From the NCBI GenBank assembly GCA_000310025.1, contig FN649746.1:756182-820181 (forward strand): a stretch of 64,000 nucleotides of DNA, written 5' to 3'. This document shows positions 5,086 through 56,881 of the stretch, piece after piece. The stretch is from Ectocarpus siliculosus (lineage: Eukaryota > Sar > Phaeophyceae > Ectocarpales > Ectocarpaceae). The notes below the pieces were generated by a model, which saw only the letters and a list, made by a program, of their open reading frames with translations, made no database searches and had not been told where the DNA came from. Made by a program: the position numbers and the translations under genes. The stretch's first letter is position 1; each line of letters begins with the position of its first letter.

Positions 5086-8000
5086 CTACACCCCGCCAAA
5101 CGTCCCGTCGTTCTCGCGCTTGACGCCGCCGCCGTCCTCCTCCGATTTCGCGGCTGCGGTCGCCAGCAGAGCAAGGTTGCGCAACGCGTCGTGGCCGCCG
5201 CCGCCCTCCGGCCCCGCAACCGTTCCGCCGGCTCCACGCCATTTCGCCCCCATCCCTCCGTGCCCGTAGTTAGAATCTATTTCCACCGGGACCGGCCACC
5301 CTGACGCGTTGGACTGGATGGCCGGGGGAGGCCCGCTGTACGAAGATCTCCAGTAAACGGGGTACCCCTGTCCGGCCGCCTGCGGGCGCTGCTGCTGCTG
5401 CTGCTGCTGTTGCTGCAAACTCATTGCCACGTGCTGGTTGGCGCTGCTGCTCGCAATGCTGCTGCTGCTGCTGCTGCTGCCGCCGCCGCTGCCGCTGTCG
5501 CTTGATGCTGCGCCTCTGCCCGAGGGACGGTGGTGCCCCTGTTGAATTACTCCGGTGTCTGGACGAAAACGGCGACGACAGGGACCCCGTGAATTCAGAG
5601 CATGCGGGGCTTCGGAGCCAACGCAGAGGTACGTATAGTGGTTTTTCCATTCTTGATCCCGACAGCGGAGGAAAGCTACAGATGCAGTTCGGTTTTTCAA
5701 TGGAAAAGACACCACCATCTGACCCAACCCTGCAACGGTGGGTTCGGTTCGAACGTTGGCCAATCAACAAGCACAACAAGACCCCGAGAAACTTCGATAG
5801 CAGCACACAAGATCCAAGGCTCTCTCCCGTACAACCTTCCAAAAATTACGCCCATCATGCCTCATCCGTGCTTGTTAGTATCACCCATCATGCCTCATCC
5901 GTGCTTGTTAGTATCAACTGCAACAACGCAGCGGGGATAAGAACCCCTCCCGGGCGCAGACCACCCGTGGGCGGGCCCACATTGCTGTTGTTGCTGTTGC
6001 TCAAGCGCCACCCGTCGAAGATACTCGTCGTGCCAGCGGTTGAAGCACTGCTCGGGGGTCTTTCCTCCGCCGACCGCGCAAGCCACCTGTCGAGAGACGG
6101 GTATTGAATGAGGCGGAGAAGAGACTTTGGGTAAAGAGCAGGGCGCATTGAGGTGGGCAAGAGGATGCGACAAACTGCACGCAGATTGCCGACAGTACAT
6201 GATGTGTCTGAGACCGGTGTGTGCACGAAGTGATTTTGTGCTGTTTTGGGATGGGTTACCACCGAACGACACCACAAGTGCCCCGGTAACCCATCCGAAA
6301 ACAAATTATGAAGCGGTTTGGTGTCTTGCTCGTTCGTGTAGTCGGCTTGGAGTGGGTGCGAGTTGCGTGACTCGCTTTCGCAGGCACTTTATGGATGTTA
6401 GGGCGGACCGAAACGATGGCAGCTAAGAAAGGCTCCCGTCACTATTAGGGAAGGCTGTGAAACAAACGGTATCAGTGAAAAGATCAATTTTTTGTGTGCA
6501 GTTGATGTGGATCACACAAGTACAGCATGCGCCGCCAATTGGACTACAGTTTTCGAGTGAGGCTCGTGCCTTGTTAATGGCCCAAGGCGAGCACCTGGTT
6601 CTGTCTTCTGTTTGGTGCTGGTGCGCCAACTAATAACTTCAGTCAGGCATTTCCCCCTGAAATCGCGAGGTTCTTGTGCCTTCTTCTACAACGACTGCCC
6701 AATACAGGACAGCCTTCATATTTTTTCGGGGATTCCGTAGTACACTCTACAGTATTGGTATGTAAAAGGCTAATAGCACGAGTAGATACAACGCAATTGC
6801 TTCACCACATGCATCCGCAACAGAGATATGTAGGCGGCCATAGCACGTGTAGCGATGAAGTAGCAATACCGCAATATGTTTCACCGCATGCATGCGCAAC
6901 AGAGGTATGCACAGCCATCCTGAGATCTTACAAGACGACATGACTTCCTGGATCGAACGCAGACCCTCTGTTCCGCGACAAGTTTGAGGCACAAGCGTAC
7001 GAAATGTGCATCAATGCATACAGAACGCGCCACCACTTAAGAACTTGACAGTTAAGAACTTGAAGGCTCATGAAATCCGAAACCTAACAAGTTGGCCATA
7101 ACAACAGGTACTCCGTCAGGAAGGCTACACAAAAACCTACTTAGTCGCCGTGGGGGTACCTCGTAGACAAGTGAGAAACGAGCATAGGCCAAAATAAGAG
7201 TGTGTGGCGCATTCTGCAGTGGGATCTTGGAACGTGTGCGGGTTCGCAAGGAGTGAGCGCGAACGGTTGGAAATAGTGGACCAGTGTGTGGCGCATTCTG
7301 CAGTGGGATCTTGGAACGTGTGCGGGTTCGCAAGGAGTGAGCGCGAACGGTTGGAAATAGTGGACCAAGTAGAACAAAGCGATCTAGATGTAATGGGGAT
7401 CCAAGAGACATGGGAATTGAAGGATGGAGACGTGAAGAGCAAACTAGGGAAATACCGGTGGGTAGGGAAGACAAGAAAGGGCTTAGACCCGAAGAAAAGG
7501 GGGGAGGGGAGAGTCGGATTCCTAGTCAAGGAACACTTGTTTGACGTGGTGGAAGTAGTGGTGAAAACGGAGTTCGAGGAAAGCCTATGGCTTAAAATAC
7601 CTGGGGAGCGGGGAGAGAAAGATTTGTTTCTAGGGAACGTATACGTACCACCGTCGTTGAAGAAAGTCGCAAGCAAGGCGAAGGAGAACTTTGGACAAAT
7701 TGGGGAAGATGCCCAGAGGTTCAGTAGGAAGGGACAAGTTGTCATGGTGGGCGATTTCAACTCCAGAGTAGGGAAAGTTTCCAGTAGAGGACAGGCGATC
7801 GGGCAGCACAGAGAAGACAAAGTGAATGACAACGGAGTGAGGATGCTTGAATTCTTGGGGAAGCAACGAGCTGATGGTGTTGAACGGTAGAAGGGAATGC
7901 GACAAGCCGGAGTTCACCAGACAAAGGGCAATCTGCAAGGAGTACTCGGTTCTCGACTACATCCTGGTAGATACGGGGAGCACACAGATCCCAGAGTTGC

Positions 8001-13861: not shown

Positions 13862-15566
13862 GCTTGTGCGCGTATGTTGGTCGGCGGATGTTCGTGTACC
13901 GGGACAGCAGTAGATCAGGTTGATGCAACCCCTTGGTATGTATATCTGATGCTATCACACGATCACACGGCCGTCGTGAAGTGCTAGGTGTGTGATATAC
14001 AGTGGGGGGCCCTCTATAGTGCCGGTTGAATAGTGCCAACTGCCGGTATAGTGCCGGTAAAATCTCTCCACACAGAAAGCGCCCTCAATAGTGCCAAACG
14101 GCACTATTGAGGGCGGGCCTGGTATAGTGCCGGTTGGGCACCACGTCAGCCCGCAATAGTGCCGGTTCACACACGCACGCACACACACCACCACACTCCC
14201 AAAATACAGACACCGTGCTGCTGCAGTCCAACACAGCTCTACGCAGAGGCGCACCATGCCGTGTGCGGAAGGTGAACTGTGCCTTCAACAGAACAGAACG
14301 CCGAAGGCCCCTCATGGCCACGTCTGCAAGGGAGGATGTGGCGGGCGGCTCCATGGCACTTGCGGCAGCGTGGAGGGTGACTTCGAAACATCCCGCATCT
14401 GCAGTTCTTGCGTCGCTGCTAAGACTGGCAAGCGCAAAGCGACCGCAGCTGGGGTTGATGCTGGGGCGGGACCATCTAAACGTCCGACAGAGAAAGGGGG
14501 GGGGAAGAAGGCTTCTCGCGCGCGGCTGAGCAACGCTGACAAGGTTGAGGTCCTCAAGCTGCTGGATGCCAAGATTTCTCATGAGCAGATAGCAGATCGC
14601 TTTAACCCTTTCGTGACTGGGTTCTTTCTGGATCTTCCGCGTTTTTTTTTGTTCTGCCGGGACCGAATAGACCGATGAGTCATGAGACACACACACACGA
14701 CACCCGCACTTGAACTTTTGCACGTTTGTTTGCGCACCAACAGGTTCCCACATGGGTCAACCGCACGCACCCCATGGTGCCACAAAGGTTTAGTGCCCAA
14801 CAGCAGCGTAACCCTCACGTGAAGAATGTGATGAGTGACCGATAACTACACTGACTGCTGTACTGCTGTATGTAGGTGCTGTCGGAAACCGGAGGAGAGA
14901 GAGAGGAGAGGGCGCCGTATTTCTTTACCCCAAACACGATTACATGGTGATAGTCTACATGGATACAGCAGCAGCAGTAGAGATACATCGCATGCACAGC
15001 AGTTCTACCCCGCCGCCGATGCAGCACACTGGCGCAAGGCATGGCACCGCCTCCAATGCCACTTGGTTGGGTGATATATCCAGCGGAGACAAGAAGCACA
15101 CACGCACGCGGTTTGTTTGTTGGATGCATGCATGCGAAACGAAATGAAAAAGCACCAGCACCAGCAGCAGCAGCCCGCCGCAGCAGCAGCAGCCAAGCAC
15201 GAGCCGCGCGAGAGATAAACTATGCCTTGTGGTGGCGGTTGGTTGAAGACGGACAAGGAATACACTCGAACACACACGCGCGCAGGAGAACTCGGGGAGA
15301 GGCCTCGTAAGCTTGGCCTTCAGTTCTGCAACCACATTCCGAAGGCAAGGAAGAAGGCACACAAGTCAACAGCGAGAGCATGCTTTATCGTACCAGATAA
15401 AGACAGGTTTTATCATGCCTCCTATCGTGCCTGTAGTCACGAAAACCCTCTCAAAAACGCGAAGGCACGGGGGCGGGTGTCTCTTTTTGACACTTTGTCA
15501 CTCCGCCACAGCCTGCCAGCACAACAGCAGCAACAACAGCAGTACAGCAGTACCAACATCACCACC

Positions 15567-16818
15567 ATGGACCCAGAGGACATCGCTCAGTTCTGGGAGG
15601 CCAAAGCGGCTGAGTGGGACCCAGTGAATGCTCCCCTAGTTGTGTGGGACGAGCTGGTTCTCATCGCGGACACAACACCCCAGCTCCTGCCCGAGGCGAC
15701 ATCTGCTGCAGCCAGGGCGGTTGGGAAGCGGTTCTGCTGCCACGGGGACAACGAGCCCCAGCCCCTCCCAGACATAAGGGACCTGGCAGCAAGGAGGACC
15801 GCAGCTCAGCAGCACCCCGGACTCTGCGGGTACCACCACTCCCGCTGGATCGGGGATGTAGATTTCTCAAAGGCAGCCGAGAGGAGCTCGGGGGGGCAGG
15901 TCACAGCGAAGCGTCTGAGGAATCAAGTAAGTATAGTACAATTGATATTTGGCAACCCCACAAATGATGGGCTGCTGACCCAGATCGGTTGTGCACCTGC
16001 TGTGCGCGTTGCACCTCGTGTATTATAGGTGTGCTTCACGTTCAGCTTTGTTTGACATGGTGGCTTGTAAGAGTGCTACAACAGTACACTAGGCCCACAA
16101 ACTTCAACCTGGACTAACGTGCGTGTGTTTTTCGAGCCTGCGGATCAATGCAGCTGCCAGACAGATCATATCACCACACGAAGTAGACAGGAAAGAGGGA
16201 TGAGAGACCTGAAAGACGCGTTTACAGCAACCCTATCCCTATGAACCTCCGCAATGCTCAGCAAATGCTCTGGAAAGACAAGCGGCGCCCAGCGCGTCGA
16301 CTCCCCTTTTGAGACAGATATGGTGTTATCTTCCGTATCAGTTAGGTTGGAGACTCTCCCATTTCGTACGAATAGGCTGGCAGCCCGCAGCTTTGTACTC
16401 CCCGCATTAGACAGCAGTAGGGGTAACGATGTACTGGGGAGGCCGAGCATAATTTTCTGTCTTGTCCGAAGTTAGGTTTTGTAATCCGAACGGGCGGTTA
16501 GTAGTCCGAACGGAGAAAAAGACGCACGCGCCGCCCCATTGCGTGAACGTCTTTCTCTCACAGATACTGCATGCCACGTAACGTTTGTTGGCTCTCCATT
16601 TTCCCACGAAAGACTGGAGTGCACGCTCTAAAAAAACAAGCCTACGTCGTCGTTTTTTCCCCCGCAACGTGCAGGCTTCGTTCGACGTGAGCACCCGCCT
16701 CAACGCGAGGGGTCGTGGCGTTCAAATCACGAGGAGGGACTGCTTCACGCAGGCGTGCCGCGCGGTGTGGCCGGGAGACGAAGCCATACCAGCGGCCATT
16801 GCGGAGGCATTGTCGTGA
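15567..16818 (+). CDS. Two-exon passenger gene in the piggyBac element, unknown product (167 aa)
   Basis: The start ATG at 15567 has a near-ideal Kozak context (ACCACCATGG). Exon 1 (15567-15926, 120 codons) ends at CAA|GTAAGT. A pyrimidine-rich tract and GTGCAG acceptor at 16674 open exon 2 (16675-16818) in the same phase, with a TGA stop. The predicted protein of 167 residues begins MDPEDIAQFWEAKAAEW, has a central CCHGD and CGYHHSRW, and ends with a basic segment (RLNARGRGVQITRRDC) and a short helix. I do not recognise a family. It converges on the transposase gene and lies wholly within the TTAA-bounded element, so it travels with it. It may be an accessory transposition factor, a captured host fragment, or a gene relic; the good start and phase-matched splice sites favour a real gene. 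Confidence 0.5.
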
Positions 16819-18158
16819 TTCTCGAGCGCGTGTTTTAGGCTGATCATGGAGCCTGAGGGGTGGGGTGGGGGGGTGGAGAGGGTTTCGTACTTACAAGAGT
16901 TTCGAGCAGAACCTCAAGGTTTGCGCTTGGCTAGTTTGCAGGGCGTCGTGCCCCCGCATGACTTTGAGTTCGCTGGGTTTGTCATTCAATTCGCTGGGGT
17001 TATTTGGAGAAAGAGTGCTGCAAGGCACAACTCGGTGGAACAACCGATGGTGCAATGGTGTGATCTGAAAATTCCGTATGTTTCGTCGCATGTTGCAGGC
17101 GCGCTCGCCGGGAGATGTGTATTGCATTTTCGCAGAGATCAGCGCCTTGGTTTCGAGATGAAGAAATGGAATAAACATGGAACAAATGATCTTGCAAGTA
17201 TTCACGACTTGATCGCATGAAGGTCTCCGGAATGTCTGTCATTGGCACACGGTTGGATTCCGATGCCGTTTGCGGTCTCTGAACTACTGGTGAGCACCAC
17301 CGGCACGTGGTGTGTATGACGTTGTCGCACGAAAGGACTAGACTACACCGCACGCAGTGAAAAAACTAAAGTGCCAGGAAAACGTTGTTTATCTAGATGC
17401 CGAAGACTTCTTTCGATTTTATCTGCAAACCTTGGTATCTGCAAACCTTGTACACTTCGTACTCCATTCCTTGTCTACGTGCGAACATGTCTGTCGACCA
17501 AAGCACGGGATACCGACGCCAAACCTAAGGCTCTTGCCACATAGGTTTCGGGTTAAAAACGACACACAACGAGCGATACACGAGCCGTGGCTAATCGCAA
17601 CAACACTGACAGTAGTCACAAGCGAATGGGGGCTAAAGGGGGGGGGGCTAAAAACTCACTACCGCAGGTGACACCGCCGGCGCCCACCAACAGTTGCCCG
17701 ACAAGCACTCTTCACCGCATATCCCGGAGGACGCTTCAGACTCTAAAGACACACGCTTTCAGAAATAGCGCGGAATAAAAGACCTACAATATTGTGATTC
17801 AGTAACTTGCACTTTATCTCGCAAGGATGAAAACGATCGTACTTCGACCGCTACATGATACAGATGGGGTGGTAAACAAGTACACAACACAAACGCCCCA
17901 CACTATAATACCACTGCTATCGGGAAGACACAACAGGTAAACGACGGAGTAAAACATTTTCATGACGGACGGGAAGATGATGCGCTACGATCAGTCTGCC
18001 TGCCAAAAAATATGTCAAGGGACCCTTACACGAGTCGATCCCTGTTTCCTCCGCCCGAAACACTCGCAACAACAACAAAAAACGGTCACGAGCACCAGTT
18101 CATATCCTTCCGTGTCCTTTTTCCGAACTTCGAGGCCTCCCGTTCAGCCCGTGCGGCC

Positions 18159-21100
18159 CTAGCGTGCCTCGCCGGGTTCTCGAAGCATCCCTTGCACATC
18201 AAAACCCCCCCGCCCCCCTCCCGCCCTGCGACCGCAGAACGCCTCGCAGGCACACCCTTTTCTTGTCGTTTTCTTGCATCCGGGGTACATGCACTTGCGT
18301 TTTGTCTTAATGTGAACGCTCCCCCAAACGTCCTTCGGGGGTTCCGTATCTTTGACCTGTCTCCCCCCCTTGTTGAGGCTACCAACACCGCACCTCCCCA
18401 TGAGCTCCGTCGACATCTGTTCGTCCCAGTCCGACCTCTCAAGATTGGCCAACCTGCGGAGCTCCTTCACCACTCCCTCCAACTCCATCGACGACTCAAG
18501 GTCTAGGTCTCCTCTCTCGAGCCTCTCCTTCGCTTCACCGTCCCAGAAGGCTACCAAAGCCTTGAACATCACGAAAATGTTGGTGAACGTCTGCTCAATC
18601 TTGGCCTCCATCACTCGCCGCCAGTAGTTCGTGCACGCCTTGTGGTCATGGGCGTGGGAACCATTCTGTTGGTCGGCCGTATCTACTCCCCTCCATGTTG
18701 GCCACGTAATCCTTACGCATCCACGGCTGCTGTAGCTCCATGGGTTTCCCCTTCTGCCCAGCTTTGCGCAGGCTGGACACGCACGAAAAGGGGCAGGCAG
18801 GCGGGGGGCAGGCGGAACACATGGGTCAGGCACCACACTTGCGGCTGCGGCGACGACGAACTGGATGGAGGTCGTCGGACGTAGCAACCTATTTTTACCC
18901 CGGCGTAGCATCAGCCCCTGTCAACACTACAATGCTCAAGCCCCAAGCACGTTCCCGGTCGGTGAGAACAGCCTGTGTGACGAACCGAATACTAAAGGCA
19001 TGAACCCGAGCCGCTGCATTTTGGCAACACCAAACTTTGAACTCCATCAACCTTTGCACGAACCAGTTTGACCGACATGCTACTCGAGCGAGGCATCCGA
19101 CATGAAGACGCAGAAATAAAAACATGAATCTGGTCAACAACAACAAAAAAGGTCACCTGTAAGGTAGAGGTGCGAAATGGTCGTCGCCGCCGTCGTCGTC
19201 TTCCTTCTTGGGCTGGCCGATGGCGGCGCGAGGTTGCGCGAGGTGGATGGTGCTGCACAGGATGATATCCTTCGAGTCGAGCCACTGCACGAATGCGACA
19301 TTGCCGGCGCGGGCAAAGTGCATGTCTCCCCGCTTGACGGGGATGCGATCGAGGCTCTGCAAGAAAGGGATCGCGCCAGCGGTTCGGTTAACCCGGCACG
19401 TACCCACCGCGAAGATGTCGTGGCCCGCAAGACACTCGAACAGTGTCGGGCTTGTGAAGTAGTTGTCCATTGCGATGTGCACGCCAGAGCCGTCGATTTT
19501 GTCACCGAACTCCTTGCAGGCGTCGAGCAGGACATGTAGAACGTGCCGAGTGGTCCGTCCCAGAGGGCAGTCAGACCACTTCCTCAGCTTGGGATCCCCC
19601 GAAAATCCACCCTCGACGCTGCTGACGAAACAGTACCCCGCGACGTCGCAGATCGCGAGCATCTTCACGCCTGCATTGGAACAACGTGAATAGGGAAAAA
19701 TGGTGGAGCGAATTAACAAGGCGGCGCAGCAGTCAATCGTGCCCGTTTGCACTCTATTCGAGTTTGCCGCTTGAAACTCGTGGACAGTCATTGACGGTTC
19801 CAGCTCCGCCATTTTCGGCACCGCCGAGCTCTGTGTAGCAATCGAGCTTTGGATTATGCCCACGGGCATGATTTCTTCATGTGACCTAAACGCCAAATGT
19901 TCCTGCTCCTATTTTTCCAGTAGAGGGAGAGGGGGGGGGGGTCAACTCCACAAAGCAAAAATGACAACTCCACCACATGGTGGCCCTTAAAAACCGAATA
20001 CTATACAAGGTCTTCGCCCATGTCCCCAGCCGCCGAGCCCTCACACCGCAAGGCCGTCACAAGGAAAACACACAGTCGGCAGGAATCGTCCATACAACAC
20101 GAAACACAAACCGCGTACCGTGGGTGATGGGCTTCTTGGGCTGGTGTCTCATGAGGAAGTGCGCGTACCTCGACACAGTCTTCACCATCTGCTCGTCGTA
20201 GCACAGCCACTGGTTGAAGTCCATGTTTTCCGTCCACGCGGTGTTCAAGATGTCTTCGAGCTCTCTGCCGGTGAAGCGACGTCAAGATTAGCACGGAGGT
20301 GTGGCGTTGGTTAATCTGTTGTAGAACATTCGTGGGACACGAACGGACATACGAATGCTCGCCTATTGATTACACACACCAACCACGCTAGTCCGTAGCT
20401 ATGATCATCCCAACCGTACGCTACTGTAGTGGTCACGTGTAGTATTCCACGGGGAGGGCGGGTGGTGTACAACTGTACGCTACTGTAGTGGTCACGTGTA
20501 GTATTCCACGGGGAGGGCGGGTGGTGTAGGGCAACGACAGGTACAACGACATGAACCCTTTGGATTTGGATTCTAGGGTACTTGCCGGCTTGGAGGCCGT
20601 TTTATTTCACCACATGAAAAAATGGAGGAGCGTGGTCCAACAGTCAGAACGCTCGAAGTCTCCGACGGGTAAAACTCACCTGATGTGCCACTTCGAATCG
20701 AAGTCCGGGTTAGGGGTGTTGTCCTCGTCCAACAATCGAGGAGGAGCGTTGCCGTCCGAGCAGTGGATGAAACGGCAGTACAACAGCTCGAACAAGTCAC
20801 GCGGCATGCACGCCCTCACTAGAGGATAGTCGTCGTGCAACGATCTACTCCAGTGCTTCCTCATGCGCGTTTTCTTGGTGAGCCCCATCGTGATCGTGAT
20901 GCCCAGCATGCCGTAGATGTGCTTGCGCTCGAATGCGGGTTCCGGCAGGGTGACCCTGCCTAGAGTTCTCGTCTTCTTCATCTGATGCTCCTTGCGCTTC
21001 TCCGTAGCTCCGGGGGGTGGTGGTGTGGTGCAAAGGTTCACGTACTTGTTGGTCTGGAAAAGTATCACGTTTCGCGCGGAAGAGGTCAGGGACAACAAGA

Positions 21101-24048
21101 CGGAGCGAAGATTAGCATATTCGCCCCAGAGGTCGCGCCGAGGTGTCGTATATATACACAATGATTGTTGATGCAAGCCGTGGCAGCACAGACATGTTTG
21201 ATTAAATTAATCCGCATACGCCTTCCGCGGGTGTCTTGGAACGTAAGCAATACCGCAAGGGGCCACAACAGACTGTGTTCTCAGGCATCTACCTAGTACC
21301 CGCTTTCAATTGTTGGGTTGGTCGGGTGGATATCGGTAATCAAATTACAACATACATAACAGGGATCCCGCGCGCTGGATAGGGGGGGGGGAGGGTNNNN
21401 NNNNNNNNNNNNNNNNNNNNNNNNNNNNNNNNNNNNNNNNNNNNNNNNNNNNNNNNNNNNNNNNNNNNNNNNNNNNNNNNNNNNNNNNNNNNNNNNGCCA
21501 GTATGATTAGGCGACCAAGGCATGCAGACGACATCATGCAGTGTAAACACCAACAAAGGGCATACAATTCATCCCGCCCCCCCCCCTCCCCCCCTTCCCG
21601 CGGAACTACTTTCAAGTCCGACGCATAACGGCTCGGTCTCTTACTTGCGTGCAACCCCCCTAGTGAGTTGTTCGAGTGCAACTTAATAAGGAATGCGACC
21701 ACACGAAAACACCAATGCTCACCTTTTGCACGAAAAGATCTACTGCCTTGTCGGGGAACATCATGTTGAAGCACGTCTTCATCAAACCACTCAGCGGGAA
21801 CTCTCCGTTCTCGTCGCGGCCGCCCATGAAGGTATCGAGAGAGGGCAACTTCGATCGCGCGGACGCCGACAGCGAAGCAGCGCTGACCGCTTGCCGCCGG
21901 GTTCTCTTCTTGTGGTCCGTCGTTCCCGCAAAGTCAGGAATGCCGCGGTCAGTCCACGCCACCTCCGGGTACTCCTCCGCCTCAGCTTTCAACTCCTCCT
22001 GCTCCTGCTGCTGCTGCTTCTCTAGCTCCTCTCTCTCTTGTCGCTCCTCCTCCTCCACCTCCTGCCGCGGCCGAAGCTGTTTTTTTTTTTCCTTTTCTGC
22101 CGCTTTCTTGAGCCTCTCCTTCTCCCTGTCGCGTATGGCCTTGAGCTGGGTTGAGCACGTCGTCGGCAAACAGCGGAAACAGAGCGGCAGGTGTGTCAAT
22201 TCATACCCTGCCGTGTTGTGTTCAATCATCCGAAAAAAAATAAAGTCGTACGAGGCGACGGTGTCACTAACACCTACGAATCGAGCGAGCGAGAGATTCA
22301 CATGAAACTGACACGGCGATCAAAAGTAACACCATACAGGGCCAGTAGGGTGTTCAGGTCACGCACATGCATTTACATACTCCGAATCGTGAACTCGACA
22401 TTCGTTGCCCCCCTGCCAACATTGGAAACCACACCCGTGTTGAGCAACAGGAGCCAGGCACGGAGGCGTCAACATGATCATGCAAGCAACCAGGTGCTTT
22501 TTACCAACACTTCTAAGATTATTTTTGGTAGAGACTAGCGACCACACGAGGCGAAACAAAGTGCCTACCTAGACACGCGTTTGTTCAGCGTTGATAGGGC
22601 ACTCTCTACTCGGTATTCCAAGCGAAAAAAAAAACGTAAGAAACTGCTACAGCAGTATTGATTCGCACTATTTATCGGACTCAACTTTTGCACCACCATA
22701 AATCGTCGTCTTCTCTTAGGTCCGCCTATTCGCCTGGAAAATGCCAAGAGAAAAGTCTACACGAACACAAACCCACCTTTAGACCCCGCGCCCTCCTCTT
22801 GTTGCTCAGCAAGTACGCCCGCCTGTACTTGAGCTCCTGGATCTTCTTCATGGCGGCCACCACCTTCTTGTCGTTCTGCGACATGCTAGCGAAGGAGCCC
22901 TGGGTTCGCTCGTGGTCCCCCCCCCCGATGCTGCCGTCGGAATCATAGTTGGCTTCGTCTACTTGGCCGTTGCTCTTCACCGATTTCCTCCTACCCGTCG
23001 GCGTACTCTTGCATTTCTTTGCGGCACCCCTCCCCTCCCCTGGTGCACCCCCCGCCTTGCGCTTCCCCGGCACACCAACCGCCTTGCGCTGCTTCCCCGG
23101 TGCACCCCCCGCCTTGTGCCTCTTGCTGTCCCCTGGCTGCCTCTCGGTTGGTCGCTTCACCCCGACCTTACTCCCGATCTTCGCCTTGCTTTTCTTTCCC
23201 GCTGCAGCCTTTCCCTGCGCTTGCCGGCTGCTGCTGCTGCTCTTGTTGCTGTTGCTGCCGCTTGGTCTCATGCTGAACTCGGGATCGTCCACCTCTTCTC
23301 CGTCCACCTTTGCGGACCCTGGCGCTTTCTTCCCGGCCGTGGCGCTCGCCGACGGCACCGGCGCCGCCATTCCTAGCGCTTTCTCCTTTGCAACTCTGAC
23401 GACATCGATGAAGGAAGTATGTACGTTGAGTCCAAGCTGCAGACGGTCGAAGTGGTTGTGCTGTTTATGGCCTGCCTCACCTACACCCTCGCGCGCTGCC
23501 CACGGATCGTCGTGTTTCCGATAGAGCAGATGCACCCAGCGATCCCCCTCCTCGTCCATTTTGTCTTTTTTCTCGAACAAGAACATGCCTGCCGTGAGGG
23601 CTGCTGAGTACGGCTGAACTGTGCCGTACGTGGGGCTTGGCTCCCACAACATGATGTTCACCCCGTACTCCGACGCCAGAAAAGAGAACCAGGTCACGTC
23701 AATCCATTTTGTTGTTGCACTTAGCTGGGCTTTCTCGCGAAACCAACCGACCGTCTTATCCTCCGGCGCCGTCATTTCTTCCACGGCAGCTCCTAAAACA
23801 TCCGGTATACGCACACTCCGGGCCCGCCCAAGCTGGTCTGGTGAGAGTACAGCTGTCAAGTCCTCAACACCGGATGCGCCAAGAACATGTTCCGTGGCTC
23901 GACGGGCGACCACGCTCCTCATGTTCTCTGGGGTGGGGGCGGCCCTTGTTCTACCGAGGCAAACCTGCAGACCCGCGGACATCGCACTAAACCCGCAGTG
24001 GCCATCCGGCTTTACGGTATACACACCAGCGCGGTCGGGCAAGACCAT
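18159..24048 (-). CDS. OTU-protease-like / piggyBac transposase fusion, six exons
   Basis: Exon 1 (24048-22777, 424 codons) has an OTU-like fold pattern: VKPDGHCGF with the catalytic-type Cys at residue 18, WIDVTWFSFLASEYGV at 125-140, and HNHFDRL near 197-203 for the His. A long basic, repeat-rich linker (GAPGK-RKA units, likely nuclear signals) follows. Exon 2 (22145-21723) is coiled coil. Exon 3 (21053-20680) opens TNKYVNL and has HIYGMLGITITMGL; exon 4 (20264-20119) has LCYDEQMV; exon 5 (19670-19157) has ICDVAGYCF, MDNYFTS and QWLDSKDIIL; exon 6 (about 18753-18159) has GVDTADQ and a Cys-rich tail with CMYPGC. These are the piggyBac DDE/D blocks in order. Donors and acceptors agree in phase through all six exons, about 1108 residues. 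The stretch KPMELQQPWMRKDYVANMEG reads one frame off, and the last finger (MCKGCFEN) is out of frame after a G run, so this copy may be inactive. Confidence 0.75.
20416..20528. repeat. 59-bp tandem duplication in a transposase intron
   Basis: Two near-exact copies begin GTACGCTACTGTAGTGG, 59 bases apart, in the intron between exons 3 and 4 of the OTU-piggyBac gene. It has no evident function. Confidence 0.8.
21397..21496. other. Assembly gap (100 N)
   Basis: Exactly 100 N follow a run of G, inside the intron between exons 2 and 3 of the OTU-piggyBac gene. The round number suggests a gap of unknown true size. Confidence 0.95.
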
Positions 24049-25730
24049 AACCCTCCCACCTCTTGTCAATTATGTGGCTGCAAATGATGCGCGACGCAGA
24101 TCCATCGATGTGCTGCTGTACCCGTTGGCCCAACGCAGCCGGCTGGGGAGCTAGCTCCTGTTCCTTGCGAACGTGATACACAGGAACCCCGTCCATAGCG
24201 CTCGTGCGAAAAATCGCAACAAGCAGGAGGAAAAACAGCATCATTATCGCGTTTCTGCGTGCTGGACTGAGGTCCACAGCAGCACAGCAGCAGCGCGGGA
24301 TGCAGGGTGCTGCGGAGCATTGCAACTCCCAGGCTTTCAATTTTCTGTATAGGGGACGTGCTGTTTCTGTCCCCGGTCGTTACTTTGTTTCTTTTCGAGC
24401 GGTCTAGTCGTACCGTCGAGCCGTCGTCGACGCAGGTATCCACAGCTCAATTCGGTTCGAAAGTTGTCGCATATAAGAGTTATCGTGCCTGCTAACATGC
24501 CCGATTCGGGGGTGTAGTCACGTAAGGGTTAAGTGCTCGGAACGGCTGGTCTGCAAGGTGAACGCTGAACGGAAGGAAGTGGAGGCTAAGGCAGCTGCAG
24601 GCGACGGAAGCCAGAAAACCGCACGCAGAGGAGACTTTCCGGAGGTAGGTAGAGTACACGACATGCCTGGCAATTTCCTCTCGAACGTTGTTTTTCCCCG
24701 CCATTTTTCAAAAATGCCCTCATGTCGCCGATTTCTACTGCTGTACCTTTTTTTTTTTTGCCCTTCCTTGTTTCTTTGCCTTTCCCTTTTCGTCTTTTCG
24801 TATGTATCATATGGTGTTTTTTTTTTTCATGTCACCTCCTTTTTTTGTTATGTCTTTGGCCTTTGAGGTCCTCGATGTCCACACTCATAGACCTTCCGAT
24901 TATTTGTCCTTGAAATTGAAAGAGCACTGTTGTGTACATATTCGCACCCGCTTTTTTTTCAAAACAAACAAGCAGGCGGACAGTGATCATGAGGACACGG
25001 GGGGCGGCCGCCGCGCCCCACCGGCTTACGGTGAACTGTCTTCTCACTTCGGCGTCCTGGAGGTGGCCGCGCGGGAGAGTGGAAACGGGGACGCTGCGTT
25101 CCCACCTATCGAAAGCGAAGATGGCGATGATCGCGGCGCATGCCGCTAAGGGCGTGCGCCAGACAGACATGAGAGAGTTTGTTGATGAGTGAGGGGGGGA
25201 CAGCTATACCGCAGTTTTTTTCTTTTTGTTTTGTTTTATTTTTGTCCGCTTCGTTGCTGGCGCGTTTATTGGTTTTGTTGGCGTGTCTCATCACGCAACA
25301 TCGTAGGGAGGCAGCGAGGAACGTGATATTTTTTCAAGTATACTAAGTTGCACGGACAGGAGCTGTACACGGGGTTTGGCTCCGAAGGTGAATTCTGCGC
25401 GTGCATGCGGGAATGGTTTCGCGGCAAACTCAGCTATCAGAGTGGAACCCACATTTGTCTCAGAAAAGGCTGCCCCTGCCGCCCACAAAGTATATTCACC
25501 ACACTCGATCCACATGCTACTCTGTTGGCCTCGCAAATGGTAAGCGATACACCATGAACTCAAACAGCAGTGCCTCAGTAGTGCCAGACCGGCACTACTG
25601 AGGGATATCGATCACCCGAATAGTGCCGTTTGGCACTATTGAGGCACTATTCCCAGTTGTGCCGGTGCCCGCTATAGTGCCGGTGAACGCCCTGCGCACG
25701 TACCGGCACTATAGAGGGGCCCCCACTGTA

Positions 25731-28703: not shown

Positions 28704-29012
28704 ACCCTTGCTGATCGTCTCTCATCAATAACGAGCAACTTTCCCATCTCAACGTGGTCGTGGACAAGCGTGTCAACGACAGAACCTACCTTCATCTATC
28801 TCTAGGAGCAAGCTACCGCCCACGGCTTCACCTCCTTTAAACTTGGCGTCAGCGGCAGGATTAGGGTTACAGAAGGAACAAGAACCTCGTCTGCTACTGT
28901 TCGTCAAGACTCTCCTGGTGTTGTCAGCCGGGCCTCTTCTCGGATCGCACACGAGCCTTCTTCTACACTCGTTGGGAACCCCGTCGATTCTCCTTCTCTT
29001 TCGCAGCTTTCG

Positions 29013-30068
29013 TTGTCTTCGACCGTCCGCTGCCCCCGTGTGACAGCACCTGATACGAATGCGTCTTCCTCTGCTGTCCACCACGTGCTGACTGCACCAC
29101 TGCCATCGGGATCGGATGGTAGTGCCCACCATTCTGTGGAAGGTTCGGCTCCTTTGTCACGGGGGAGTAGTCCAGAGCTCCCTGCGTCAATGCAAAAACA
29201 TCCGTCTGCCGCAGGAAGGACTTCTCCTAACGAACAGGTCTCTAATAGCCGAATGGCCTCTGCTAACATTGACCTCGCCGGAGCCGCCGCCCGTAGGCCG
29301 CCCTCCAGATCATGGACCGGTGCGACTTCGCCCGCTCCTTCCTCGCTTTCTGGGTCCTCCCCGTCGGAGATGAGGACCCGTCCGCTTGGCCCACCCCCGC
29401 CCGTGCCTGGTGCCCGCTCTTTGCCCCATCGCCCTGCACCGGCTCCGCCGTTTGATGACAAATACGAGTACGCTTCGGATGACGTCCTCCTCTTCTGGAA
29501 ACCTCCGTCTGTGTTCTCGCAGTGGACTCCCTCGGCTTTTGACGTACTGGGGGTACGTTATTCATGTGGTGAGCAATTTATGACGTCTGAAAAAGCGAAG
29601 TTGTTTGGGGATATGACGTCGTATGACAAAATCATGGCTGCAACAGATTCTAAGACACACAAGTACTTGGGTCGTAACATACGTCCTTTCGACTATGCTG
29701 AATGGGAGCGTCGTCGAGAAGAGATCGTGCTTACGGGGTCGTATGCCAAATTTGCTCAAAACCATGACATGAAACAACATTTACTGGAGACGGGTACCCG
29801 CCTTCTTGCGGAAGCCAGCCCCTTCGATCGTATTTGGGGTATCGGCATGTCTGCATGCTTTCCAGAGGCTAGCGTTTCATCCAAGTGGGCGTCTAGCGGT
29901 AACAACTTGTTGGGAAAAGCTTTGATGGAAGTTCGGCGCCTTTTGCGTGATCATCCCTTGTCTGGCGAAGCTTCCTCCGCCTCCACTTCTCCCACGCCCC
30001 CCATTTCGCAGCCTCCTCCCCATGGACGTCGACGCACCCACGAGGTTGCTACTGCGGCAGGTTCGTAA
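29013..30068 (+). CDS. NADAR (YbiA-like) domain protein, first frame of the gypsy fossil
   Basis: A Ser/Pro-rich N-terminal half of about 145 residues is followed by a NADAR domain in the C-terminal half: FSQWTPSAFDVLGVRY, then EQFMTSEKAKLFGD, KYLGRNIRPFDYAEW, YAKFAQNHDMKQHLLETG, and AEASPFDRIWGIGMSA. The Glu in the EQF motif, the K-A-x-L-F-G-D block and the final D-R-I-W-G-I-G are the family's signature positions. NADAR proteins act on N-glycosidic bonds in NAD/ADP-ribose or riboflavin-related metabolites. The frame lies directly upstream of and on the same strand as the polyprotein, in the position of gag; no gag zinc knuckle or capsid motif was seen. It may replace, extend or accompany gag. 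Confidence 0.75.
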   Translation: MSSTVRCPRVTAPDTNASSSAVHHVLTAPLPSGSDGSAHHSVEGSAPLSRGSSPELPASMQKHPSAAGRTSPNEQVSNSRMASANIDLAGAAARRPPSRSWTGATSPAPSSLSGSSPSEMRTRPLGPPPPVPGARSLPHRPAPAPPFDDKYEYASDDVLLFWKPPSVFSQWTPSAFDVLGVRYSCGEQFMTSEKAKLFGDMTSYDKIMAATDSKTHKYLGRNIRPFDYAEWERRREEIVLTGSYAKFAQNHDMKQHLLETGTRLLAEASPFDRIWGIGMSACFPEASVSSKWASSGNNLLGKALMEVRRLLRDHPLSGEASSASTSPTPPISQPPPHGRRRTHEVATAAGS

Positions 30069-30099
30069 TCGCGGGAGGACCGGGGTGAAGACCCAGCTT

Positions 30100-32690
30100 G
30101 TCTCCGTTTGGACGCTCCGGGGGACCATGCTCCTGGTGTTCATCTGGTGGCCTCGACCTCCGCTTGTGCAGACCAACCTCCTCTTCTGGAACACGGGCCC
30201 AATCTGGTCGGCGGCACGCTCCTGTTGGACTCGGACTCATACACCACCTGGGTTCTGCTGTATGGAGGACCTACAGCCACTTCTCAACTCGCGCGAGTGG
30301 CGCTGCTGGACTCTGGGTCTCCTGCGTCTTTCGTGTCCGACTCCGTGGTCACCGCCATGATAGCTGCTGGAGCCCTGACAGCTGGCAGCGTTCGTGTTTA
30401 GCCCTCTCGTCGTTGGGGTGGGTTTGGTGATGGACCCGCCCTTGTGGCCACTCGGTCAGTTCGTCTCACCGTTAATTTTCTTCATGGAGATCGAGCTACC
30501 GCTTCCTTGGCGGTCTGGGCCTGCGTTGTTCCAGATGTCGCCATGGGGCACGCCGTGCTTCTGGGTCGTGATAGCTGGATGCGGTTCAACTCTCGAGGGT
30601 TCACCACCCTCCCCCACCCTGGACCGGACGGCCGGGTTATGGGCGAGCTCACGCTCTCTCCGCGTTTTACAGCTGGCGCTTGTGTTTACGCTACACACGA
30701 CGACGCTCCTGCCTCCGCGTTTCATCTAAAATATGCAGGGAGCTCGGGAATTTCCTTGGGACCGGAGCCTGCACTCGTTGAGGTGGACCTCGTCCGTTCT
30801 TCTGGCATGCCTGCGTTGATCGGAGAGTATCTGGTATCGTTCCGACCCGAAGTGGGGGCGCTTTCGTCCCCAGATGCATTTGTTTCCAATGGTCTCCAGC
30901 GTATTCCCTCTGCAGGTTGTGCCGAGCTGGAGCCGGGAGACGTTATTGCGGTGTCTGCCGCACCGCTATTACGAGTCCCGGTAGAAACCCTGAAGGCGGC
31001 ACCATCTTCGATTCCTACCGGCCCCACGGCCTCTACATCACCACATCGGGTCAACGTCGTTGGCCTCAAGTCCGGGACTCGCCGCTCTCCGGACCCAGCC
31101 TCCGCCCCGCCTCCTCCGAAGCCGCCTCCACAAGAACTACTTGACCGCTTCTCCGAGGCACAGCGCTCCAGCTTCCTGCGCTTGTGGGCTAGGCTGCCCG
31201 CACATATGCACGACATCGCTTTCGATCTACACAACCCGGGATGGACACCGGAGGCTATTGATCGTTTGGCCGATGCCCTTGTAGAGTATTCCGACGTGTT
31301 CTCTACTTCGAAAACCGATTTTGGTTCCTGCACCGTCATGCCATTCACTATTTCTGTCCCCGCAGGGACGAAGCCCGTCGCATCACGCCCGTATCGTATC
31401 AACCCGTTAATGCTGAAGAAAGCGGATGCCGTTTTGGACCAGTATTTGGCGGCAGGGCTCATTCAGCATTCTACTTCTCCATGGGCTTCTCCTCTGGTTG
31501 TCATCCCCAAGAAGGACGGATCGGTTCGCATCACCGTCAACTACAAGCGTCTCAACGGCCTGGTGGACTTGGATGGACAACCTCTCCCTCGGGTGGACGG
31601 TATCTTGGATTCTCTGTACACCGGGAAAGTGTTCTCCATCTTCGACCTCAACTCGGCCTTCCACCAGATCGTTTGTGATGAAGACACTGTCCCGCTCACC
31701 GCCTTTTGCACTCCCACGCAGTTGTTCGAATGGCTTCGGATGCCGCAGGGAGCCAACGCAAGCCCGTCTTGGTTCGTCAAGGTCATTAACAGAGTGGTGC
31801 ACGGTCTGGAGCGTGTGCTTGCGTATCTGGATGATGTTATCTGTTTCGATGAGGAACCTCTGGGACACGTGCTCAACATGATCGAGTTCTTCAAACGGCT
31901 GCGGCAGTGCAACCTCAAACTGTCTCCGGGGAAGGCTCGTGTCGGCGACACACACGCCAACTTCCTCGGTCACACCATCTCCCCGGCCGGGGTTAGCCCT
32001 GATGGCGTCAAGGTTCGGGCGCTCACGCACATGCCGCCGCCGACGAATGTTAAGCAGCTTTGGAGCCTTCTCGGTGGACTCAGCGACTACCGGAAATTCC
32101 TCCAGAATCTCGCCACCAAGGTGCGGCCTCTCAACTCTCTTCTCAAACAAGGCGTCCCCTTCAAGTACACCCCGGGCATGGTCGAGGTTGCCAAAACGTT
32201 GTTAAGCGAACTCGCGCGTCCCCCGATTTTAGTCTTTCCGGATTGGGCAGCGGTCGAGGACAGCAGCCGTCCTCTCCGTTTGTGTTCCGACGCGTGCATC
32301 GACGGCTTTGGAGCCTCCCTGGAACAAGAACAGCTCGATAGCTCGGTGAGACCCATTGTGTACATCAGCCGCGCTACTCTTCCTGCGGAGTGGAACTGGA
32401 CCGTTCTGGATCTGGAAGCTGGTGGCATTGTTTGGGCCATTAAGCGCCTTCGGGGTTACCTGTGGTCGACCAAGTTCATCATATATTCAGACCACAAAGC
32501 CTTGGAGAGCATTGGCATGGTTGGGGAACACAACGCTAGGGTGCAACGATGGCTCGAATTCCTGTCCAACTTCACCTACACCCTGAAATATCGGAAAGGT
32601 TCGTTCGGCAAACGGCAACGCGGATTTTCTTTCGCGGCTGACTTTACCAGCATAAGACACGGACAAAACCGGCCCCGATTGCATTGATGG
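30100..32690 (+). mobile_element. Gypsy protease-reverse transcriptase-RNase H part
   Basis: An aspartic protease motif (LLDSGSPASFVS, with LLGRDSW further on) precedes reverse transcriptase with FSIFDLNSAFHQI, RMPQGANASP and AYLDDVICF, then RNase H with CSDACIDGFGASL and IYSDHKALESI. This is the standard Ty3/gypsy order. It is part of the fossil at 28.5-35.9 kb. Confidence 0.85.
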
Positions 32691-33599
32691 TGTCGATCAA
32701 GCGGGTGTTTTCCTCATTCGGGCTTGCGGACTCAATTATCACTGGTCGTCTACACCGGAGGTCGGTTTGGGTGGGCTCCGCCCTCCCTGCTCGGCGGGAG
32801 TCTTTTCACCCCCAGCGCTGCAGCCCTCCGATTTTGGGGATTTTCGCCGTCATCACCCGCGCCGGCTGGATGTTCGAACGGACTCGACGATTGCTTACGA
32901 GGATTCTCGGAGGTCTCCGGGGGTCTTCATGGTCTCGCCTGTTCCCGGATCTTCAGTGCCTGTTTCCCCTTTGACTCCTGCTACGTCCCGCGGGATGTCT
33001 CCTGCCGCGTCTTTGGCGACTAGATATGTGCACGTTTTGTCTTCGCTTCCGGAGCGGGGACCGCTCATTTCTTCACGGACTCGGGCCAAGACTACCGCTG
33101 CTTCTGGAGGCACCGTCACCGGTCCCGCCTATGTCGGACGCCAGCCGCGGGCTACCATCGTCCCTCGGACATCGTCGCCTGCCCGTCGCCCTAGCAGGTC
33201 CCGCTCCACAAACAAGACCACCCGGACCGTCGCGCGTCTACTGCGGCCATCCGCGACGCCGGCATCGGCGTTTTCGTCGACTGCCCCTGCGCCACCGGTG
33301 CCTTCGCCGGCATCGGAGCGCCCTGCATCCCCGGTTTCGCCTTCTATACAGGCTTTGCCTTCTATACAGGCTTCGCCTGGGACTTCGCCCCTCCCGATGT
33401 CTCCTTCACGGACAACACCGCGACCTGCAGCTGTACCAGTCGCTGAGGCTCCTCGTTCTACAGCCTCTTCCGTTGGATCGCCTGACTTTAGTTTGGAACC
33501 TACTGACTTGGACCCCTCACACTTGCGGGCTTGTGTTCAGAGCTTTAGCACTGTGGATTGGGCTAGGGAACAACAGCGGGAGAGCGAATGCGTGGTGGC

Positions 33600-35710
33600 T
33601 ATGTTTTCTGTCTCGCGGTTCTCCCTCCCCACCCCCTTCTGACTTGCTAACCCTCAGTGCTCCTCTTCGCTCCCCTCGGTTAGACGATGTCCTTGCGTTG
33701 GCGGCGAAAACCAGACTGCACACAACCGACGACAACGTCACCCTCCTCGTACATAAATCGGCGCCATCGCCGATTGGGCGCTCTGGCGGCAGGACCACTC
33801 GTCTACCGGATACTGGTGTGCCCCGTGTCTACGTGCCAATGCTGATGCGTCCGTGGGTCCTTCATGCCTGCCATACCGCCGCGTCCTTCCATCTCGGTGT
33901 TCATCGTACACAACTGCTTGAGCGTTTCTACTGGTGGATTGGTTTGGATCGTTCCGTGCGCTGGTGGCTTCGAGCGTGTTTGGTGTGCCAAGCTCGCAAG
34001 ACTTCGCGTCAGACCGCTCGGTGGCCTGGTACGGTCGTCGGCGTCGACTTCTTTGGACCTCTGCCAGTGACTGCCAAGGGCAACTCCTACATTTTGTTGT
34101 TCACAGACCGTTTCAGCCGGAGAGCCGACATGTTCGCAGTTACAGCGGCGGAATTTACGGCGAAAGGGACGGCTCACATCTTCGTCAACCAGTACATGAC
34201 CAAGTGGGGATGTCCGACTACGTTATTGTCGGACAACGGACTGCATTTCTGCTCGAAGCTCTCCATGGCGATCTACGAGGTGATGAAAATCAAGAAGGTC
34301 ACCACCAGCTCCTACCACCCGCAGACCAACGGCGGCACGGAACGCGTCAATCACACGATGGCTCAGATGCTTACAGTGGTCGTCAACGAACAGCAAAACG
34401 ATTGGGACGTACATCTCCCGCACGTTGAGTTTGCCTACAACAATTCCGTGAACCAGTCGACTGGATTGGCGCCAAACGAGATCCACATTGGACGCATCCC
34501 GCGGCTTCCGCTTTCGGTTTTCGATCATCCCACGGTAGGTGGTCATCAAAGCTTGGCCCGCGACCAACTCGAGTATTGCAACTTGGCTGTCGATCGCCAG
34601 CGCCGGGCCTACGAACTTGTCCGTGAGTACAACGTCCTGAAGATTTCGCGAGTCGAACGCCGTAATTCATCCCTGCTGGACGCCATCCACAAGCTCCCTC
34701 AATTTACCGTTGGCGGGTGGGCTTGGGTCTACAACACGGCTGCTACGATTCGACAGGGTGTGCGGAAGGACACGGATCAACAGGTACTCAAGGCCAAATT
34801 CGCGCTTTCCTGGACGGGGCCCTACAAAGTTCTTGCGGTGGGTCCCGCTTCGGCCGACGCCACCCCAGATGGAAGCCCGTTGGCGCTTAAACTCCTCTAC
34901 CTGGACCTGCCTTCCGTTCTTTCCGGCCCAGCAGCTCGATGTCGCGTGTCTGCCCTTCGTTGCAAGCCCTGTCGCAATCCATACGAGACGGACGACCTGC
35001 CCCAATCTCTGCCCGCTGAGCTTTCGCGTTATGTTCTGCACTATTTCGGAGATAAATGTCCACCGTTTCACGTCACCGCGGATGATGTGTCGGTGCCTGT
35101 CGGGCGCCTCGAGGTCGACTACATTTCGGGACATCACCTGGTGCGGGGCCGTAGCGGCGTTCTCGCTGTCCTGTACCAGACGCATTGGCTAGGCCTGACT
35201 ACTCCTTCATGGGAACGGGAGTCCGACCTCGATCAATTCCGTCGACACATCCTCTTGTACTGGTCTAGAGAGGTCTGCCAAAGCAAGCAAGGTAACCGTA
35301 CGTATCGAGTGGCTCGGACGCGCGCGGCACAACGGGAGCTAGCCCGGAATCGTGGAGAACGCTATTTGCCTCCTGGGGCTGATCTTGTGCTTCACGCGAC
35401 TTGGCTCCGTCGTTTCAGCACTTCGCCCCTCCCGGTGGGAGCGCGGCTGTGGTACAAGGCCCGCGATGGATTGTGGTGGACCGGACGTATTGGTGCTCGT
35501 CAGGACGGCTCGTACATCGTTCGATTTCTGGATGACCCGGGCCCAAGCGTTCTCCCTCTGCCTGCGCACCTCTACTCCACCGCCGTGGACGCTGTCTGTG
35601 GATCATGGTGTTTAGAAAAACATCGTTCGCGCCCTTTGGGCGACACCCGTGGTCGCACTCCTCTCATTACTGACTCCTTACCATCGGCTGTTCCCAATAT
35701 CTCTTCTTAG
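33600..35710 (+). mobile_element. Gypsy integrase, chromodomain and Tudor-like part
   Basis: The integrase has the zinc-binding H-H-C-C head (ending CLVCQARK), a catalytic core with VDFFGPL, LLSDNG and SYHPQTNGGTERVN, and then a C-terminal region. VDYISGHHL, QTHWLGL and SWERESDL look like a chromodomain, as in chromoviruses. A further segment, LWYKARDGLWWTGRIGARQD, resembles Tudor or Agenet modules. Both could direct integration to marked chromatin. Confidence 0.8.
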
Positions 35711-56781: not shown

Positions 56782-56881
56782 NNNNNNNNNNNNNNNNNNN
56801 NNNNNNNNNNNNNNNNNNNNNNNNNNNNNNNNNNNNNNNNNNNNNNNNNNNNNNNNNNNNNNNNNNNNNNNNNNNNNNNNN
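56782..56881. other. Assembly gap (100 N)
   Basis: The gap starts directly after a poly(C) run. Another long G/C homopolymer block follows shortly after (56908-56932), so the homopolymers probably caused the break. Confidence 0.95.

What the first reader, a model, noticed from the sequence alone, without database searches (positions are those of the whole stretch)
18159..24048. An OTU-type protease domain fused to a piggyBac transposase
Seen: exon 1 carries VKPDGHCGF, WIDVTWFSFLASEYGV and HNHFDRL at OTU-like spacing. It joins, through phase-matched introns and a coiled coil, to exons bearing all the piggyBac DDE blocks. Known: OTU proteases remove ubiquitin, and piggyBac transposases normally have no such domain; I know of no described OTU-piggyBac protein. 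Inference: the protease could stabilise the transposase or counter ubiquitin-based silencing, or process the fusion itself.
Basis: partly seen in the sequence, partly recalled or inferred. Interest (0 to 1): 0.88.

Follow-up and report, generated by a model that had tools for sequence, protein, structure and literature searches.

The report
PiggyBac transposon with protease-like front end
A jumping gene, probably from a brown alga, seems to make its cut-and-paste enzyme with a front part that resembles a ubiquitin-removing protease; protease fusions are known in other jumping genes but this pairing may be new, and the protease call is still unproven.

Summary
The piggyBac half is real: exons 2-5 joined with the start of exon 6 match Pfam DDE_Tnp_1_7 at E=8.8e-30. 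Joining the flanks at one TTAA gives an open helix-turn-helix frame. So one 9.9-kb element, nested in a Tc1-like element, encloses both the OTU-like exon and the transposase. The OTU call is weaker. Cys, Trp and His boxes occur in OTU order; 0 of 20000 shuffles and 0 of 292 E. coli K-12 segments score as high. But Pfam lists no OTU match, an OTU HMM built here gives 2 bits, spacing is longer than in six solved OTUs, no homologue was found, and two AlphaFold runs failed. Fusion rests on phase, splice signals and the domain starting in exon 2. Exon 6 breaks frame twice; intron 2 holds a 100-N gap. OTU- or Ulp1-bearing transposases are known; OTU-piggyBac was not found in print. New variant of a known kind.

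The parts
14602..24532 (-). piggyBac-type transposon, TTAA to TTAA, holding both the OTU-like exon and the transposase
   Evidence: TTAACCCTTWCGTGACT inverted at both ends; best of 2071 inward TTAA pairs, 0 of 300 random rounds reach 12 of 13; flanks joined at one TTAA give an open HTH frame
24516..24532 (-). terminal repeat at the OTU side, TTAA plus CCCTTACGTGACT
14602..14618 (+). terminal repeat at the far side, TTAA plus CCCTTTCGTGACT; a diverged copy of its core sits inside at 14811
22777..24048 (-). exon 1, 424 aa: OTU-like region (residues about 10-205: D15/C18 box, Trp box from W115, H199 box), then a basic, repeat-containing linker
   Evidence: no Pfam OTU match
22146..22776 (-). intron 1, GT-AG, phase 0, 631 nt
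21723..22145 (-). exon 2: charged, coiled-coil-like stretch (by eye), then the first 18 residues of the Pfam piggyBac match
   Evidence: the Pfam stretch starts at residue 124 of a query that begins with this 141-residue exon
21054..21722 (-). intron 2, GT-AG, phase 0, holding a 100-N gap at 21397-21496
20680..21053 (-). exon 3, piggyBac domain
   Evidence: DDE_Tnp_1_7 E=3.8e-5 alone
20119..20264 (-). exon 4, piggyBac domain with CYDEQM (first catalytic Asp by recalled correspondence)
   Evidence: within the joined match; no match alone
19157..19670 (-). exon 5, piggyBac domain with MDNYFTS (second catalytic Asp by recalled correspondence)
   Evidence: DDE_Tnp_1_7 E=4.4e-12 alone; piggyBat 9c0f aligned here
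18086..18772 (-). exon 6: GVDTADQ (third Asp, recalled) and Cys-rich pieces, with the frame broken inside 18675-18699 and inside 18194-18226
   Evidence: no piggyBac match of its later frame alone
15567..16818 (+). possible second gene on the other strand: exons 15567-15926 and 16675-16818, phase 0, 167 aa, unknown; weak prediction
   Evidence: GT-AG sites, open frame of the first exon, no Pfam match, no clear codon signal
14000..14601 (+). left part of the outer Tc1-like element: TIR CAGTGGGGG..., HTH coding segment cut by the piggyBac insertion
24533..25728 (+). right part of the outer Tc1-like element, ending in the inverted TIR
   Evidence: 26 of 27 bases match between the two TIRs, TA on both sides

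Best explanation
This is one copy of a piggyBac transposon, 14602-24532, whose transposase gene has gained an N-terminal OTU-like cysteine protease domain, joined through a basic linker and a coiled-coil-like stretch to a DDE_Tnp_1_7 catalytic core. Shown: one mobile element encloses both parts; the piggyBac core; open, phase-consistent exons 1-5; the three OTU-type boxes in order. Inferred: splicing of exon 1 to exon 2, an OTU fold, and catalysis by C18, H199 and D15 (D three residues before C is the OTUD-type arrangement, recalled). Most likely action, also inferred: the protease rides with the transposase into the nucleus and removes ubiquitin from the transposase itself, or from proteins at the transposition site. 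That would prolong the transposase's life or ease repair after excision.
For: TIR/TTAA ends and empty site; piggyBac match E=8.8e-30 in one stretch that starts in exon 2, on the same side of the N gap as exon 1; phases and GT-AG sites; three-block OTU score 46.0 against a maximum of 41.3 in 20000 shuffles, 25.8 in 292 E. coli segments and 18 in the other 43 of 44 window segments; with the Cys box kept, 17 of 5000 shuffles of the rest reach it, highest 59.7; hhalign score 28.2 against a maximum of 21.2 in 300 shuffles. Precedents: Ginger1 transposases with OTU or Ulp1, Helentrons with OTU.
Against: No OTU match in Pfam up to E=10; the one family listed for exon 1, ALN, is under its cut-off. No match in NCBIfam or PHROGs. 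A PDB sequence search gave two unrelated chains at E=0.36 and 0.93 and no OTU. The HMM built from six OTUs gives 2.0 bits, E=0.017 for one target. hhalign confidently aligns only the 17 columns of the Cys box, probability 27; forced to full length it takes H179 rather than H199. AlphaFold models at mean pLDDT 32 and 31 are uninformative. No relative confirmed in IMG/VR or GTDB genomes, none in plasmids, and only three phage records at E=4-8. One copy only, with a broken transposase frame. Weak codon signal in the OTU core: 0.068, against 0.051 for the best antisense frame (0.062 and 0.057).
Confidence: 0.55

Rival explanations
1. Two genes in one transposon: an OTU-like accessory protein ending at its own stop (22726), and a separate piggyBac transposase starting in or before exon 2.
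For: Without splicing, exon 1 runs only to 22726. The frame upstream of exon 2 is open from 22319 and contains an ATG. Autonomous Harbinger elements in Ectocarpus carry two genes (PMC12477816).
Against: GT-AG pair in phase 0. The upstream extension 22319-22146 scores below zero in all six frames, also when intron 1 is left out of the background model. By eye, the charged stretch runs on across the splice.
Confidence: 0.2
2. The exon 1 domain is a cysteine-protease-like or other domain that is not OTU, and the three boxes are a coincidence of motif.
For: No profile match, no OTU in a PDB sequence search; spacing longer than in six OTUs; no structure; with the Cys box kept, chance does reach the score in 17 of 5000.
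Against: 0 of 20000 shuffles and 0 of 292 ORF segments reach the three-block score. The Asp-x-His of VTD deubiquitinases is absent after the Cys (sequence).
Confidence: 0.25
3. A decayed, inactive copy: whatever the domain once was, this locus makes no working fusion. Compatible with the main reading of the family.
For: Two frame breaks in exon 6.
Against: Exons 1-5 have no stop and keep their splice sites; both breaks lie in G-rich stretches and the window has two 100-N gaps, so assembly error is possible. The ends still match at 12 of 13.
Confidence: 0.45

Closest known systems
piggyBac superfamily DNA transposons
   Same: DDE_Tnp_1_7 core, TTAA target, 13-bp TIR starting CCCT; published rule 12-19 bp starting CCYT (PMC5601938, passage)
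   Different: 9.9 kb, five predicted introns, extra N-terminal OTU-like domain and linker, possible second gene
Ginger1 DNA transposons (PMC2836005, passages)
   Same: a transposase fused to an OTU or Ulp1 protease domain
   Different: there the domain is C-terminal on a Gypsy-integrase-like transposase; here N-terminal on piggyBac
Helentrons/Helitrons with OTU or VTD domains (PMC4067079; PMC9741609; passages)
   Same: mobile element carrying a deubiquitinase-type domain
   Different: rolling-circle RepHel enzyme; VTD has an Asp-x-His motif not seen here after the Cys
OTU deubiquitinases of solved structure: OTUD1, OTUD3, OTUD5, OTU domain-containing protein 2 (7pl7, taken as yeast), and two OTU1 chains (3by4, 4boq; taken as yeast OTU1 and human YOD1 from recall)
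   Same: Asp-containing Cys box, Trp box and H-aromatic-D/N box in order
   Different: longer spacing, HF instead of HY, no profile-level match
Teratorn (PMC5601938, passages)
   Same: large piggyBac element with added genes
   Different: carries a herpesvirus genome; the term OTU does not occur in that paper's main text

Membership tests
piggyBac superfamily | DDE_Tnp_1_7 transposase domain | tested here: met
   E=8.8e-30, 104.6 bits against cut-off 22.4
piggyBac superfamily | TTAA target site at both ends | tested here: met
piggyBac superfamily | TIR of 12-19 bp starting CCYT | tested here: met
   CCCTTWCGTGACT, 12 of 13 identical; rule from PMC5601938
piggyBac superfamily | three catalytic Asp in one reading frame | tested here: inconclusive
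   DEQ and DNY in frame, GVDTADQ only after a frame break; correspondence recalled
piggyBac superfamily | C-terminal Cys-rich domain | tested here: inconclusive
   Cys-rich pieces in two frames
OTU protease | match to the curated OTU profile | tested here: not met
   no match up to E=10; own six-sequence HMM 2.0 bits
OTU protease | Cys, Trp and His boxes in order | tested here: met
   0 of 20000 shuffles, 0 of 292 E. coli segments; the Trp box alone is weak, 4.2
OTU protease | box spacing as in known OTUs | tested here: not met
   100 and 85 residues against 58-73 and 48-57 in the six used; other OTU subfamilies not compared
OTU protease | OTU fold | tested here: inconclusive
   AlphaFold without relatives, pLDDT 32 and 31
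OTU protease | ubiquitin cleavage | not testable with these tools
   needs an enzyme assay
VTD deubiquitinase | Asp-x-His motif after the catalytic Cys | tested here: not met
   none after C18 in residues 19-233 (read from the sequence; motif)
Ginger1 | Gypsy-integrase-type core with C-terminal OTU or Ulp1 | tested here: not met
   core is DDE_Tnp_1_7 and the OTU-like part is N-terminal

The most novel reading that the evidence does not exclude
A piggyBac lineage in brown algae has captured an N-terminal OTU-type deubiquitinase as part of its transposase, so that the enzyme that moves the DNA carries its own means of escaping or editing ubiquitin signals.
Probability: 0.5. Interest if true: 0.68.

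Novelty: new variant of a known kind. Interest (0 to 1): 0.5.

Why it matters
Protease domains of the deubiquitinase or SUMO-protease kind sit on unrelated mobile elements (Ginger1, Helentrons, Mutator). An independent capture by piggyBac, at the other end of the protein, would strengthen the case that control of ubiquitin is a recurrent need of transposition. piggyBac is a standard genome-engineering tool, so whether a cis deubiquitinase alters transposase stability is directly testable.

Tried and rejected
Relatives of exon 1 were sought in IMG/VR (7 pattern stretches, none confirmed), GTDB genomes (27 stretches, none confirmed), phages (three records, E=4-8) and plasmids (none); of exon 5 in IMG/VR (2 stretches, none confirmed). 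General OTU relatives to widen the profile were sought in IMG/VR (54 and 33 stretches, none confirmed). So no selection test or deep alignment was possible. No genome is held for the window. Exon 1 was folded twice without an alignment: useless, so no fold search was run. A tblastn hit of exon 1 at 58105-57989 (E=0.075) was judged chance. TTAA at 17553 was considered as the far end and rejected, because its TTAACCC faces the wrong way. A first null for the TIRs without a distance limit was polluted: 132 of 2000 rounds reached 12 or 13, and the window itself gave a 13 among its pairs. It was replaced by inward pairs 2-20 kb apart. In one search the 5000-shuffle table came out empty (0 rows), so only the single-target score is used. 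Codon scoring had intron 1 in its own background; rerun without it the upstream extension of exon 2 is still below zero in all six frames. Codon scoring does not separate strands well (exon 2 coil: sense 0.335, antisense up to 0.422) and is weak for the OTU core.

Full report
Observation. The minus strand from 24048 carries six predicted exons: 24048-22777, 22145-21723, 21053-20680, 20264-20119, 19670-19157 and 18772 onward. Phases run on and there is no stop through exons 1-5; all five predicted introns are GT-AG, 384-669 nt. Exon 6 does not hold one frame: it breaks inside 18675-18699, before GVDTADQ, and again in a G-rich run at 18194-18226. Intron 2 holds a 100-N gap at 21397-21496.

The transposase. 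Exons 2-5 with the first part of exon 6 match Pfam DDE_Tnp_1_7 at E=8.8e-30 in one stretch, residues 124-458 of 514, and the solved piggyBat transposase 9c0f at E=4.2e-7. Alone, exons 3 and 5 match (3.8e-5, 4.4e-12); exons 2, 4 and the later frame of exon 6 do not. The joined stretch starts in exon 2 (141 residues), so exon 2, on the OTU side of the gap, carries the start of the domain and the stretch spans the gapped intron. This supports the scaffold order.

The ends of the element. TTAACCCTTNCGTGACT occurs twice without mismatch, inverted, at 14602 (+) and 24532 (-). Of 2071 inward TTAA pairs 2-20 kb apart it is the only one with 12 of 13 matching inner bases (next best 10), and 0 of 300 rounds at random sites reached 12. 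The published piggyBac rule is TTAA plus a 12-19 bp TIR starting CCYT (PMC5601938, passage seen). Joined at a single TTAA, the flanks give one open frame, RLSNADKVEVLKLLDAKISHEQIADRF/KCSERLVCKVNAER; this joined protein matches HTH_23 at E=2.8e-4, 21 bits, under its 24.6-bit cut-off. Outside lie CAGTGGGGG[G/C]CCCTCTATAGTGCCGGT repeats at 14000 (+) and 25728 (-), 26 of 27 identical, each next to TA: a Tc1-like element (by TA, CAGT and HTH; correspondence recalled) into which the piggyBac element jumped. The OTU-like exon starts 484 bases from the 24532 end and is therefore part of the transposon.

The OTU-like region. Pfam shows no OTU match up to E=10 for exon 1 or its parts; it lists only ALN, E=0.11-0.31, under its cut-off. 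NCBIfam and PHROGs show nothing, and a PDB sequence search gave two unrelated chains (E=0.36, 0.93). I made a three-block matrix (Cys, Trp, His boxes) from six OTUs of solved structure. Exon 1 scores 46.0, at PDGHCGFSAM, KWIDVTWFSFLASEYGVNIMLW and HFDRL. None of 20000 shuffles reached it (maximum 41.3), none of 292 ORF segments from 100 kb of E. coli K-12 (maximum 25.8), and none of the other 43 of 44 window segments (maximum 18). The six OTUs themselves score 85.8-100.5 on a matrix built from them. With the Cys box kept and the rest shuffled, 17 of 5000 reached 46.0, the highest 59.7, so the Trp and His boxes add something but not much; the Trp box alone scores only 4.2. Spacing (100 and 85 residues) is longer than in the six (58-73 and 48-57). 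hhalign gives probability 27, confident over 17 columns only; its score of 28.2 exceeds 300 of 300 shuffles (maximum 21.2), but a forced full-length alignment takes H179 as the His. A six-sequence HMM gives 2.0 bits. AlphaFold without relatives failed twice. I put the OTU-like fold at about 0.7.

Fusion or two genes. For fusion: phase-0 splice sites, a charged stretch that by eye runs on across the splice, the piggyBac match beginning in exon 2, and a below-zero codon score in all six frames for the open extension upstream of exon 2. Against: no transcript; exon 1 if unspliced would stop at the 17th codon after the donor; and that extension does contain an ATG. I put fusion, given the rest, at about 0.8.

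Mechanism. The linker is basic and repeat-rich (three copies spaced 27 and 30 nt at 23035-23122), as nuclear proteins often are (inference). An N-terminal deubiquitinase on a transposase would act first on its own molecule or its partners: cis protection from the proteasome. The Ginger1 authors propose instead that OTU or Ulp1 domains may act on repair after or during transposition (PMC2836005, passage). Both are inference here.

Prior work. Ginger1 (OTU or Ulp1, C-terminal), Helentrons (OTU), Mutator (Ulp1) and VTD-bearing Helitrons show that such domains recur on mobile elements (passages seen). The Ectocarpus TE survey lists four PiggyBac families, and the term OTU does not occur in its main text (PMC12477816, passages and section 5 seen); its supplements were not looked at (no look-ups allowed). 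A search for 'piggyBac' with 'OTU domain' found 2 papers, neither on transposon proteins by title and start of abstract. Nine broader searches showed no OTU-piggyBac paper among the titles and abstract starts listed, but several lists were cut (for example 20 of 1550, 15 of 111). Passages of PMC8086355 and PMC12062965 mention none. Subscription papers and Repbase were not searched.

Source. A Gypsy element with an upstream NADAR domain (E=8.1e-44) is a combination reported from Ectocarpus, so a brown alga is likely (inference).

Verdict. A real, well-bounded piggyBac element with an OTU-like N-terminal exon: a probable new variant of a known kind. It rests on one copy, with motif-level support for the protease and a broken 3' frame.

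Noticed in passing
window 28806-35710 (+): Gypsy retrotransposon with an upstream NADAR domain (E=8.1e-44), RT/RNase H, and integrase zinc-binding (E=3.4e-12) and core (E=1.6e-6, under its cut-off) domains; the NADAR-Gypsy pairing is already reported from Ectocarpus (PMC12477816)..
   Followed up: partly
window 14000-14601 and 24533-25728: Tc1-like element with 27-bp TIRs (26 of 27 identical) and TA flanks, split by the piggyBac insertion; encodes an HTH segment..
   Followed up: partly
window 15567-16818 (+): Possible two-exon gene inside the piggyBac element on the opposite strand, 167 aa with a few Cys and His residues, no Pfam match..
   Followed up: partly
window 14000-14165 and 25569-25728: Several palindromic copies of TAGTGCC/GGCACTA within the outer element's ends, perhaps transposase binding sites (inference)..
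   Followed up: no
window 20411-20528: Tandem pair of 59-bp units, 98% identical, in intron 3..
   Followed up: no
window 7198-7890 (+): Endonuclease/exonuclease/phosphatase domain (E=4.3e-11), LINE-like by inference, with a short tandem duplication in its N-terminal part..
   Followed up: no
window 56782-56881: Second 100-N assembly gap, flanked by G/C-rich sequence..
   Followed up: no
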